In this document: positions 20,142 to 58,317 of the stretch, piece after piece
Layout: every line of letters starts with the position of its first letter
Position numbering within the stretch: the stretch's first letter is position 1
From: Phycisphaeraceae bacterium
GTDB lineage: Bacteria > Planctomycetota > Phycisphaerae > Phycisphaerales > UBA1924
DNA: 64,000 nucleotides
Direction of reading: 5' to 3'
Assembly: GCA_019636795.1 (NCBI GenBank)
Contig: JAHBWW010000004.1
Coordinates: forward strand, 372,001-436,000
Position numbers and translations under genes: made by a program
Notes under the pieces: generated by a model
The model's input: the letters and a program-made list of their open reading frames with translations, nothing else
Databases searched by the model: none
What the model was told of the DNA's origin: nothing

Positions 20142-20267
20142 GACCCTCGAAAATGGAGCAAAATCCTTCAAAAGTGCTCCGCAATTGAAGGGAAATGCTC
20201 CTCCATCGAAGGATTCCAGAGCTCCCGCGAGGGGAAATGAAGCTCCCGCGAGCGAAAAAAGTCCTCC
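20142..20267. repeat. Degenerate 21-bp tandem array (6 units)
   Basis: Six contiguous 21-bp units start at 20142, 20163, 20184, 20205, 20226 and 20247. Most end in a TGCTCC, AGCTCC or TCCTCC block and have an A-rich middle (for example GGGGAAATGAAGCTCC). Units are far more diverged than those at 55.8 kb. The array ends 30 bp before the stop of the next minus-strand gene. Confidence 0.6.
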
Positions 20268-20297
20268 CGTCGCCGCTGGCGTTGCCCTGACGCCCCC

Positions 20298-53517: not shown

Positions 53518-55716
53518 TCAATCCTCATCCAGACCGACCTTGAGCACCGCGGTAGCGATCATGCGCGGATCAGGACGAAGGCTGAGTGAACGCCCAATGG
53601 CCGACTCCGTACGCTCAACGGGCCCTGCATGCACGGTGCGGCCGTTCAGAATGACGGTGACTACCTCATCCAGATCCAGCAACGCATCGCTGAGCAGCAG
53701 TTCGACGCGCGACACAGCATCACTTTCGATCGTGATCGTCTGGCCTTCGACTGTGGCGCGAATCACACGCCCCCGAACAGCCTCTTCATCCGGCACCGCG
53801 AGCCAGTAGAACCTCTCGTGCGTGGTATTGCCCTGTCGCCAGACGATCGAGCGGGGCCATGGATCACGAACTTTCTGCGCCATCCACGGAATCGCCTCGG
53901 CATCCTTGCGGTTCATCCAGTGTCCCAGATCAGGATAGATGCGTGCCATGTGTTCGTAGCCATCGGGGTCGGCTGCACGCAGTTGAGCGAGCTGGTCGGC
54001 CCATTGCTGCGCCACCGTGTTGCGGTTGTAGGCGGCGTCATCGGCCCCCATGAACAGACCAAACGGGAGATTGCGCAGACCCAGGGGCGATGAATCGTTC
54101 GGATGCCCCGCCATCATCGAGGCGGCAGCGAATCGATCCGCCAGACGCGGTGCGAGTTGATAGACACCATCGCCTCCGGCCGAGTACCCGATCAGATACA
54201 CACGATCAGGATCGACACCCCAGGCAATGATCGCCGATTCGATGAGCCGATCCAGGAGGCAGTCGATCTCGGGGCGATGCCAGAGGTTCCAGGTGTCGGT
54301 CGGGGCGCGCGGGGCGATGCAGATGCCCTCAGGGAGCGTGTAAAGATTGACCTGATTGCTCCATTGCTGATCGTTCACGCTGGGCGGCGCGCCCCCACCG
54401 CCGTGCATCGAGATCCAGAGGCTCGCTCCGCTCGCCGGCGCCGAGCCGAAGTCGCGGCGCATGAGTCGCATGTCATAATCGCCACAGCGAAGCGACAGGG
54501 CTTCGAGTTCGGCCTGGCGCTGGGCGCGCACGGATGCGGCGTGCTGGGCCCACACGCTCGCGGCTGTCGCCACCGCTGCCTCTTTCGACAGACCGAGTTC
54601 ATTCCAGTACAGTTCGATGACGCGACCGGGCGCGTGCGATTCGCTCAGCACTGCCGTGCGCCTCTGGCCGTCATGAACCAGCGCGATGCGCAATGGCCGC
54701 TGGCCGGTGTCGGCCAGTTCGGCGACGCGGTTGATGTCGTCGGGGTCGGCGAAGGTGCGCGATCGAATCGCCTCTTCGGCTTCGAGCGCCGTCACTTCGG
54801 CCGCGAGCCGCTTCCCGCCGCGCGATTCCCACAGACGGATCGTGAGCACGCTCCTGTCAGTGCCCGCTGCGGCCTTCGCGCGGGTGTAACGCGACGACAC
54901 ATCGACCCCCGGCACACTGCGATCGCTCATGTTCCATGCCAGCGGGAAGCGGTCGCCCGTGCGCCGCCACGACGAGGCCCAGATCGCGTGCAGTTCGTGG
55001 CCTTCGATCGCGTGCGAGGCCGGGCCCGCGAACCAGCCGCGGTCAAGACCGCTTGGGTCATACTCAGCCGCCCCCGCGAACCGCCACTGCTCGCCGTCAT
55101 GAATCTCGACCCAGGTGTGGTTGCCGTTGCGATCGGTCCACGAGGCGATGCCCGCGACGCGCGCGGGGATGCCCACGCTGCGGCAGGCATCGACGAGCAG
55201 AATCGACAGCCCGGTACACGACGCAAGACCGAGTTCCATCGATTCGAGCGGGCTCTGGTTGGCTTTGCGGCGGCCGGTGCTGTACGTGACGTTGACGCTC
55301 TTGAACAGTTCCCGGTTCAGAGCCTGGGCCGCTTCGGTTGCGGTCTTGGCGTCGACGACCATCGCGCTGGCCAGTTCGTGCAATCGCGGCCTCCAGCGCT
55401 CGCGGGTCTCATCGAGCACCGCGTAGGGCAGGACGTCGTTGAAAAAAAGTTCTTCGCGGACTTCGGCGGCCCACGGATAGGTGGTGCGGGCATGCAGCGC
55501 CAGGCCGATGTTCTCGATCACCAGGTCCGGGTCGATCTGGGCGTCGCGCTGCGGGCGATGGGCCATAAGAAACGCGGCCGCGCGCCCGCCGGCCTCGCCG
55601 AACTGCTCGCTGGCCCGCTCCTGAATCGTCGTCCAGACCGGCTCATCGCCGGCTGCAGGTCCGGCAAGGAGGACAAGAGCGGCTGCCACCAGTCCGATGA
55701 GTCGAGTGTGCATCAT
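53518..55716 (-). CDS. Transglutaminase-esterase fusion protein, exported
   Basis: A 732-residue exported protein; signal peptide ~22 residues (ending GPAAGD). A transglutaminase-like domain lies at about 90-280: nucleophile Cys in LGLASCTGLSILLVDACRSV, His in GNHTWVEIHDGEQW, then Asp in AAEYDPSG. From about 420 there is an alpha/beta-hydrolase of the feruloyl/phospholipase-esterase type: oxyanion WISMHGGGG, nucleophile Ser in YLIGYSAGGDG, and His in YPDLGHWMN. A C-terminal beta segment closes it. ATG 55716 is chosen because the signal peptide starts there; further upstream the frame is only the 21-bp repeat array. Substrate unknown, probably extracellular peptides or esters. Confidence 0.85.
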   Translation of the reverse strand: MMHTRLIGLVAAALVLLAGPAAGDEPVWTTIQERASEQFGEAGGRAAAFLMAHRPQRDAQIDPDLVIENIGLALHARTTYPWAAEVREELFFNDVLPYAVLDETRERWRPRLHELASAMVVDAKTATEAAQALNRELFKSVNVTYSTGRRKANQSPLESMELGLASCTGLSILLVDACRSVGIPARVAGIASWTDRNGNHTWVEIHDGEQWRFAGAAEYDPSGLDRGWFAGPASHAIEGHELHAIWASSWRRTGDRFPLAWNMSDRSVPGVDVSSRYTRAKAAAGTDRSVLTIRLWESRGGKRLAAEVTALEAEEAIRSRTFADPDDINRVAELADTGQRPLRIALVHDGQRRTAVLSESHAPGRVIELYWNELGLSKEAAVATAASVWAQHAASVRAQRQAELEALSLRCGDYDMRLMRRDFGSAPASGASLWISMHGGGGAPPSVNDQQWSNQVNLYTLPEGICIAPRAPTDTWNLWHRPEIDCLLDRLIESAIIAWGVDPDRVYLIGYSAGGDGVYQLAPRLADRFAAASMMAGHPNDSSPLGLRNLPFGLFMGADDAAYNRNTVAQQWADQLAQLRAADPDGYEHMARIYPDLGHWMNRKDAEAIPWMAQKVRDPWPRSIVWRQGNTTHERFYWLAVPDEEAVRGRVIRATVEGQTITIESDAVSRVELLLSDALLDLDEVVTVILNGRTVHAGPVERTESAIGRSLSLRPDPRMIATAVLKVGLDED

Positions 55717-55832: not shown

Positions 55833-56063
55833 TGACACGACAAAAGCGTTCGTTGACACGATAAAAGCGCGCGTTGACACGACAATTCCGCGCGTTGACA
55901 CGACAATTTCGCGCGTTGACACGATACAAACGCTCGATGACACGACAATTTCGCGCGTTGACACGATAATTTCGCGCGTTGACACGACAATAACGCGCGT
56001 TGGCGCAACAAAAGCGCGCGTTGGCGCGACACAATCGCGCGTTGGCGCGACACAAGCACGGGC
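55833..56063. repeat. 21-bp tandem repeat array, 11 contiguous units
   Basis: Eleven head-to-tail 21-bp units without gaps, starting at 55833, 55854, 55875, 55896, 55917, 55938, 55959, 55980, 56001, 56022 and 56043. The consensus unit starts TGACACGACAATTT and ends CGCGCGT. Units 1-8 begin TGACACG; units 9-11 begin TGGCGC; the last unit is degraded at its end. A half-recognisable unit may precede at 55812. The whole array is free of stop codons in several frames because 21 is a multiple of 3. It lies about 117 bp upstream of the exported fusion-protein gene. Confidence 0.95.
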
Positions 56064-56205: not shown

Positions 56206-56532
56206 TCAGCGGCGCGAGCGAGTCGACTTGCGGTGCTCATAGCGGTGCACGCGGTCGAAGCGCTCGCGGCCAGCGGCACTCGGCGCGCCAGCGTCGGGCA
56301 CGAAGCGGACGGTGCCGGCCTTGAGGTCCAGATCCGTCACCCTGTAGCCCGCCTCCATCCACGCCACCGCCTGCGTGTGGGCGTTGGTGCCGTTGGACCA
56401 CCACTGCCGATGGTGACGGGCGGCGTAGGGAAGCGTGATGCCGGTGGCCCGTTCGAGATCGTCAAAGGATATGGCGAGCTCCTCGCCCGCACACGTCACA
56501 AGAAAGTCGCGCAGCGCGTGATACTTGCTCAT
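56206..56532 (-). CDS. DUF7662-type hypothetical protein
   Basis: A 108-residue protein. The pattern MSKYHALRDFLVTCAG, ISFDDLERATGITLP, HHRQWWSNGTNAHTQAVAW and AGYRVTDLDL matches a small family found widely in bacteria (DUF7662), often near mobile or defence genes but of unknown function. After about residue 75 the sequence becomes basic and unordered (RERFDRVHRYEHRKS), longer than usual for the family. ATG 56532 is used because conservation starts there. Confidence 0.65.
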   Translation of the reverse strand: MSKYHALRDFLVTCAGEELAISFDDLERATGITLPYAARHHRQWWSNGTNAHTQAVAWMEAGYRVTDLDLKAGTVRFVPDAGAPSAAGRERFDRVHRYEHRKSTRSRR

Positions 56533-56673
56533 CGTGGCCGAGTATACCGTCGCAGAATCGGGCCCGGCGCCGCGGTGGACAACCACGAGCGGCTATGCTG
56601 TCGGCGAGTCAGCACGCCGCGGTCGCGCCGCCACCAGGTTTTTGCCAGCTACGGTAGAGAAGGAGGACCACCC

Positions 56674-58002: not shown

Positions 58003-58054
58003 AAGCGCGATCGCACCGCCGCAAGCAGCGCATGGGCCGCCGCAGCGAAAGAAA

Positions 58055-58100
58055 AGCGGGCGAACGGACTCGAACCGTCAACATTCAGCTTGGAAGGCGG
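58055..58100 (-). other. 3' fragment of a tRNA-Gly(UCC) gene, putative attachment site
   Basis: Read on the minus strand, the sequence from the anticodon loop CTTCCAA to the 3' end is tRNA-Gly-like: GCTGA anticodon-stem strand, a T-arm GACGG-TTCGAGT-CCGTT and a 3' acceptor strand CGCCCGC with discriminator T. Upstream of the anticodon loop no matching acceptor strand (GCGGGCG) or D-arm is found. Such 3' halves are left when an element integrates into a tRNA gene. No full tRNA-Gly is in the window. Confidence 0.65.
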
Positions 58101-58317
58101 ACACCATACCCCGCAAGCGACTGACGCTGCAAGCACTTACGACGATCGTACATTTGCCCCCCACCATTCTGCCACCCCATCGGCAAACGAGGCTGAGAAT
58201 CGTCCACACATCGACCGGGAACTTGCCAGTTTGATCACCGCTTGGCCCGACTTGCCGGAAGCGATACGGGTTGGGATCGCGGCGATGGTGGCGAGTGTGG
58301 TCAAAGGAGGAGGCTGA
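58090..58317 (+). CDS. Small ORF, possible remnant of an island gene
   Basis: A 75-residue open frame starting with TTG inside the tRNA fragment. The end, ELASLITAWPDLPEAIRVGI, then AAMVAS, looks like the C-terminal helix typical of small proteins next to integrases. The N-terminal half is unordered and may be a chance fusion created by integration. Its stop is 3 bp before the next start. The 5' part may be truncated. Confidence 0.5.
   Translation: MEGGHHTPQATDAASTYDDRTFAPHHSATPSANEAENRPHIDRELASLITAWPDLPEAIRVGIAAMVASVVKGGG

What the first reader, a model, noticed from the sequence alone, without database searches (positions are those of the whole stretch)
55833..56063. Gapless 11-copy 21-bp tandem array in front of an exported fusion-protein gene
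Eleven contiguous 21-bp units share a TGACACGACAATTT-type opening and a CGCGCGT end. Spacing is exactly 21 bp, that is two DNA helical turns, so any bound protein would face one side of the helix. Each junction also creates a TTGACA or TTGGCG block. The array is stop-free in several frames on both strands. Divergence is graded: units 9-11 switch from TGACAC to TGGCGC, which suggests stepwise duplication. A repeat this regular outside a gene is not explained by any feature nearby. It could be a nucleoid-protein platform, a regulatory array or a minisatellite.
Basis: seen in the sequence. Interest (0 to 1): 0.72.

Follow-up and report, generated by a model that had tools for sequence, protein, structure and literature searches.

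The report
Genome-wide 21-bp DNA lattice arrays
The repeat is real and is one of dozens of short intergenic arrays scattered through this planctomycete's chromosome, all built on an exact 21-base step (two turns of the DNA helix) but written in different words, which suggests that the spacing matters more than the letters.

Summary
The 11-copy, gapless 21-bp array is confirmed. It is non-coding and lies 117 bp upstream of an exported transglutaminase-domain gene. It is not a one-off. About 11 such intergenic arrays occur in 845 kb of this Phycisphaerales genome, about 9 in 480 kb of the nearest sampled genus (G024), and 3-4 in 200 kb of a third genus (G082). Seven other family members (100 kb each) and 1.27 Mb of wider Phycisphaerae have no convincing one. 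Each array uses its own words, and words can be mixed within an array, yet the period is always 21. Across 245 neighbouring unit pairs there are 1,815 substitutions but almost no change of register. Units are on average dyad-symmetric (combined p about 3e-14, though not in the focal array), and A/T content is phased at 10.5 bp (p = 0.003). There is no codon-phase signal. Some arrays were copied to new sites with one conserved flank. I favour a helically phased platform for a dimeric bending or nucleoid protein that reads shape and spacing (0.42). The main rival is a selfish or neutral repeat copied by a 21-bp ruler (0.33). No binding protein was identified.

The parts
55833..56063 (.). Focal array: 11 gapless 21-bp units, consensus TGACACGACAATTTCGCGCGT; units 9-11 are of the TGGCGC type
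   Evidence: TRF, unit pattern counts against shuffles, rows of 21
20143..20268 (.). Second, weaker 21-bp array in the same window (words GGAGC, GAAGGGAAATG); shares array sequence and one flank with the array at C3:159k
53518..55716 (-). Exported protein with transglutaminase core; its start codon is 117 bp from the array
   Evidence: PF01841 E=2.1e-13; ORF and signal-peptide-like start read
56206..56586 (-). DUF7662 gene on the other side of the array
   Evidence: PF24698 E=1.7e-14

Best explanation
The focal repeat is one member of a genome-wide class of intergenic 21-bp arrays ('lattices') in a group of Phycisphaerales. Shown: the period is fixed at 21 bp across arrays with unrelated words and across three genera, the register is kept over 10 or more units, units are on average dyad-symmetric, and A/T content is phased at 10.5 bp. 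Inferred: each unit presents one dyad site on the same face of the helix, so that a dimeric DNA-bending or nucleoid-type protein can bind side by side along the array by reading shape and spacing rather than exact letters, making a curved nucleoprotein segment between genes. New arrays arise by copying an array with one flank to a new site, followed by unit duplication and drift of the words (copying shown by shared flanks; the order of events inferred).
For: Non-coding period-21 clusters: 7, 4, 11 and 4 in C4, C2, G024 and G082 samples against 0-2 at other fundamental periods. Lag-21k identity 0.65 to 0.49 over k = 1-11 with one-base-off lags at about 0.23. 1,815 substitutions over 245 unit pairs, yet 268 of 270 profile hits inside arrays and 16 of 22 in flanks are in register. 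Dyad symmetry, Fisher p about 2.7e-14 against column-permuted units. Permuting arms between units does not lower complementarity at the best axis, as expected for two half-sites of one consensus. A/T content has its largest periodic component at 10.5 bp, p = 0.003. Predicted curvature above column-permuted lattices, Fisher p about 3e-6 (focal array p = 0.03).
Against: No binding protein was found and archaeal-type histones (PF00808) are absent from all 163 family genomes searched. Words differ between arrays, which rules out one sequence-specific protein. The focal array itself is not significantly dyad-symmetric (p = 0.77). The wedge values were written from memory. Individual arrays turn over fast. 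Arrays were found by their period, so the in-register figure inside arrays is partly circular.
Confidence: 0.42

Rival explanations
1. Selfish or neutral minisatellites: the arrays have no function. They spread by copying an array plus one flank to new intergenic sites and grow by slippage or unequal exchange, with 21 bp set by the copying machinery (a ruler) rather than by selection.
For: Three sets of dispersed arrays share the array and one flank only. Fast turnover: absent upstream of miaB in 29 relatives, and a G082 array absent from six congeners. Intergenic tandem repeats are deletion hotspots in lake Planctomycetota (PMC9426551). Two contigs break inside one array. Arrays avoid co-directional gene pairs.
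Against: Ordinary slippage predicts mixed periods and indels; 21 bp dominates in three genera with unrelated words and register is kept over about 1,800 substitutions. Dyad symmetry and 10.5-bp phasing are not expected of neutral repeats. A ruler mechanism would itself be unexplained.
Confidence: 0.33
2. The arrays act as RNA: transcribed hairpin arrays that end or insulate transcription, or that act as structured non-coding RNA.
For: Most arrays fold more stably than dinucleotide shuffles (z down to -8.7). Arrays are over-represented between convergent genes (8 of 27 against 47 of 380, p = 0.02). Terminator-like stems occur in the focal region (4 against 0.8 expected).
Against: The focal array folds less stably than shuffles on both strands (z +2.5 and +1.9). 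No compensation between arms at the best axis. Arrays also lie between divergent and co-directional genes. No Rfam family above its threshold. An RNA hairpin does not need an exact 21-bp step.
Confidence: 0.13
3. Each array is a sequence-specific operator or iteron cluster for its own regulator, with the number of units tuning the response of the adjacent gene.
For: Words are repeated within arrays and one word (TTGACACGACAA) recurs in at least seven arrays; the focal array is 117 bp upstream of a start codon.
Against: Words differ widely between arrays and are mixed within arrays; flanking genes and orientations are mixed and no rep gene was seen; no match in plasmids or phages.
Confidence: 0.08
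4. The arrays encode heptapeptide repeats.
For: Open frames run through the focal array and 21 bp is seven codons.
Against: Column variability has no codon phase (Fisher p = 0.85 over 26 arrays), and the open frames differ between arrays, with in-frame stops in many.
Confidence: 0.02

Closest known systems
Bacterial minisatellites / VNTRs, including the intergenic tandem repeats reported as deletion hotspots in lake Planctomycetota (PMC9426551)
   Same: Intergenic tandem arrays of short units, fast turnover, same phylum
   Different: One fixed 21-bp period in many arrays with unrelated words and in several genera; dyad symmetry; register kept. The passages read in that paper mention no such step
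Plasmid iterons (17-22-bp direct repeats at replication origins; own knowledge)
   Same: Helically phased direct repeats of about two turns
   Different: Many chromosomal loci, different words at each, no rep gene in the flanks examined
CRISPR arrays (own knowledge)
   Same: Fixed step, and one conserved flank in some dispersed copies
   Different: No long constant repeat with unique spacers; 21-bp total step; units recur
REP / BIME palindromes with RAYT transposases (own knowledge; GTAG/CGTC-tagged REPs, PMC3733652 seen as an abstract only)
   Same: Dispersed intergenic elements with dyads
   Different: Long tandem lattices instead of single or paired hairpins; no Y1 transposase detected in the array-bearing genome G082
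21-bp repeats of the SV40 early promoter (own knowledge)
   Same: Two-turn spacing of direct repeats
   Different: A single viral promoter element bound by a sequence-specific factor; not a dispersed family

Membership tests
Minisatellite / VNTR | Head-to-tail array of units of about 10-100 bp | tested here: met
   TRF, 10.7 copies of 21 bp
Minisatellite / VNTR | Copy number varies between strains (for VNTR) | not testable with these tools
   The genus holds only this genome; a contig break inside one array hints at it
Plasmid iterons | Located at a replication origin next to a rep gene | tested here: not met
   Dispersed chromosomal loci with unrelated flanking genes; no match in plasmids
Plasmid iterons | Bound by one sequence-specific initiator | not testable with these tools
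   Words differ between arrays, which argues against it
CRISPR | Constant repeat of 23-47 bp with unique spacers, and cas genes | tested here: not met
   21-bp total step with recurring units; no Cas domain in the flanking genes scanned
REP / RAYT | Cognate Y1 transposase in every genome that carries the repeats | tested here: not met
   G082 has arrays but no PF01797 hit
Protein-coding repeat | Variation concentrated at one codon position | tested here: not met
   Fisher p = 0.85 over 26 arrays
Structured RNA | Compensatory changes between paired arms | tested here: not met
   Permuting arms between units does not lower complementarity at the best axis

The most novel reading that the evidence does not exclude
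A new class of chromosomal element in Phycisphaerales: dispersed intergenic DNA lattices in which the conserved information is a 21-bp, two-turn, dyad-symmetric step rather than a sequence. They would be read by an unknown dimeric protein that recognises shape and phase, and would spread as array-plus-flank copies whose words evolve freely.
Probability: 0.3. Interest if true: 0.86.

Novelty: new variant of a known kind. Interest (0 to 1): 0.66.

Why it matters
If spacing rather than sequence is what evolution preserves, these arrays would be an unusually clear natural record of helical-phase constraint in a bacterial chromosome and a direct handle on chromatin in Planctomycetota. If instead they are neutral, they show a copying process with a strict 21-bp ruler, which would also be unusual. 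Either reading is testable, because more than 20 arrays with largely unrelated words already serve as internal replicates.

Tried and rejected
A genus pattern search was off by one base and is void; the genus holds only this genome anyway. Promoter array: one weak hit. Coding heptads: rejected. Histone platform: PF00808 absent from 163 genomes. RAYT/REP. Shared function of flanking genes: none. Rfam: only matches far below threshold. Plasmids, phages and viral contigs: none. Pooled autocorrelation over intergenic DNA was too contaminated by missed coding sequence to be useful. A directional flank motif (CGARAAC, AACGCG pointing towards arrays) is suggestive but inflated by homologous copies, so it is not claimed. 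Papers: nothing on 21-bp arrays in bacterial chromosomes was found in the searches made.

Full report
OBSERVATION. The window holds a gapless 21-bp array at 55833-56063 (11 units; TRF 10.7 copies, 82% matches, 0% indels). Chance is excluded: 10 matches to an 18-mer of the unit against 0.26 expected. The array lies 117 bp upstream of the ATG (55716, minus strand) of an exported transglutaminase-core protein, and 143 bp from the 3' end of a DUF7662 gene. The plus-strand fusion gene named in the title (3-keto-disaccharide hydrolase plus BSP peptidase) is separated from it by that DUF7662 gene.

NOT A ONE-OFF. The window lies in a 3.49-Mb genome (G000, contig C4). A DNA search with the array found seven further loci with the word TTGACACGACAA, or a close variant, on a 21-bp step. 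Read in rows of 21, several of these mix that word with unrelated words on the same step: CAACATCGTGTATCG at C4:219k, CTGCA/TTTGT words upstream of miaB, and GGAGC/AAATG/GAAGG words at C3:159k and the end of C1. A lag-identity scan that assumes no word found ten period-21 clusters in 445 kb of C4, two of them in coding sequence, against 0-3 at other fundamental periods. With a home-made gene caller to set coding sequence aside, non-coding clusters at 21 bp numbered 7 (C4, 445 kb), 4 (C2, 400 kb), 11 (G024, 480 kb) and 4 (G082, 200 kb); other fundamental periods had 0-2. By eye I accept 9 arrays in C4, 2 in C2, about 9 in G024 and 3-4 in G082. Simple scaling suggests about 45 arrays in this genome (inference).

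DISTRIBUTION. G024 is the nearest genome found by MiaB identity (78%) and belongs to another genus of the family; G082 belongs to a third. Named relatives place the genome in Phycisphaerales. Seven other family genomes (100 kb each) have no convincing array, nor do 1.27 Mb of Phycisphaerae loci, where there were two period-21 hits: an acidic coding-like repeat and a run of only three units. The two-unit word is absent from 84,980 genomes and from viral contigs. No convincing array lies upstream of miaB in 29 relatives, and a G082 array is absent from its six congeners. The class therefore persists across genera while individual arrays and words turn over.

THE LATTICE. Pooled over 26 arrays, identity at lag 21k falls only from 0.65 to 0.49 for k = 1 to 11, while lags one base off stay near 0.23. 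Neighbouring units differ at 1,815 sites over 245 pairs, yet 268 of 270 profile hits inside arrays and 16 of 22 in the 170-bp flanks are in the same register. Because arrays were found by their period, the inside figure is partly circular; the flank figure is less so. Units are dyad-symmetric on average compared with column-permuted units (Fisher p about 2.7e-14), although the focal array is not (p = 0.77). Permuting the arms between units does not lower complementarity at the best axis, which fits two half-sites of one consensus better than RNA helices maintained by compensation. A/T content has its largest periodic component at 10.5 bp (p = 0.003). A wedge model predicts more curvature than in column-permuted lattices (Fisher p about 3e-6; the wedge values were written from memory). 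Variability has no codon phase (p = 0.85). Most arrays tested fold better than shuffles as RNA, whereas the focal array folds worse.

SPREAD. Three sets of dispersed arrays share the array and one flank only: C4:88k, C4:219k and C1:726k (about 80-100 bp of flank, found nowhere else in the genome); window 20.1k and C3:159k; C4:369k and C2:164k. Arrays have therefore been copied to new sites together with a flank. They are over-represented between convergent genes (8 of 27 against 47 of 380, p = 0.02) and under-represented between co-directional genes (p = 0.03), using the home-made gene calls. Flanking genes have no common function.

INTERPRETATION. 21 is the smallest whole number of base pairs that makes a whole number of 10.5-bp turns, and the conserved property is the step, not the letters. 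I therefore favour a helically phased platform for a dimeric, shape-reading, DNA-bending protein (inferred; the protein is unknown). The strongest rival is a selfish or neutral repeat whose copying machinery sets the step. The present data cannot separate selection on spacing from a copying ruler. RNA, operator and coding roles are less likely for the reasons given under the rivals.

COMPARISON WITH WHAT IS KNOWN. The arrays meet the descriptive definition of minisatellites. Intergenic tandem repeats were already noted as deletion hotspots in lake Planctomycetota (PMC9426551). I found no report of a fixed 21-bp step, but only an open-access library was searched. Iterons, CRISPR and REP/RAYT each fail a tested defining feature.

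LIMITS. Gene calls are home-made. Only about a third of this genome and small parts of its relatives were read. No second genome of the genus is held for a strain comparison.

Noticed in passing
G000 C1 end (L042, last 300 bases) and C5 start (L043:1-70): Two contigs end in the same 21-bp array and share the 21-mer ATTGTGTCGTGTCATCGAGGG, so the assembly probably broke inside an array of near-identical units.
   Followed up: partly
Own genome near arrays, e.g. L004:1230-1380 and L043:100-290: A second dispersed element, a TGGCCA-containing imperfect hairpin, sits close to the 21-bp arrays: 6 of 12 sites lie within 700 bp of an array, about 0.3 expected.
   Followed up: partly
Flanks of arrays in G000, G024 and G082: Flanks are G-rich on the strand reading towards the array from both sides (GC skew about 0.1 within 200 bp), with CGARAAC/AACGCG motifs pointing the same way; homologous copies inflate the counts.
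   Followed up: partly
window 58050-58170, minus strand: A stretch that by eye resembles the 3' half of a tRNA-Gly; ARAGORN calls no tRNA there. It could be a remnant or an attachment site.
   Followed up: no
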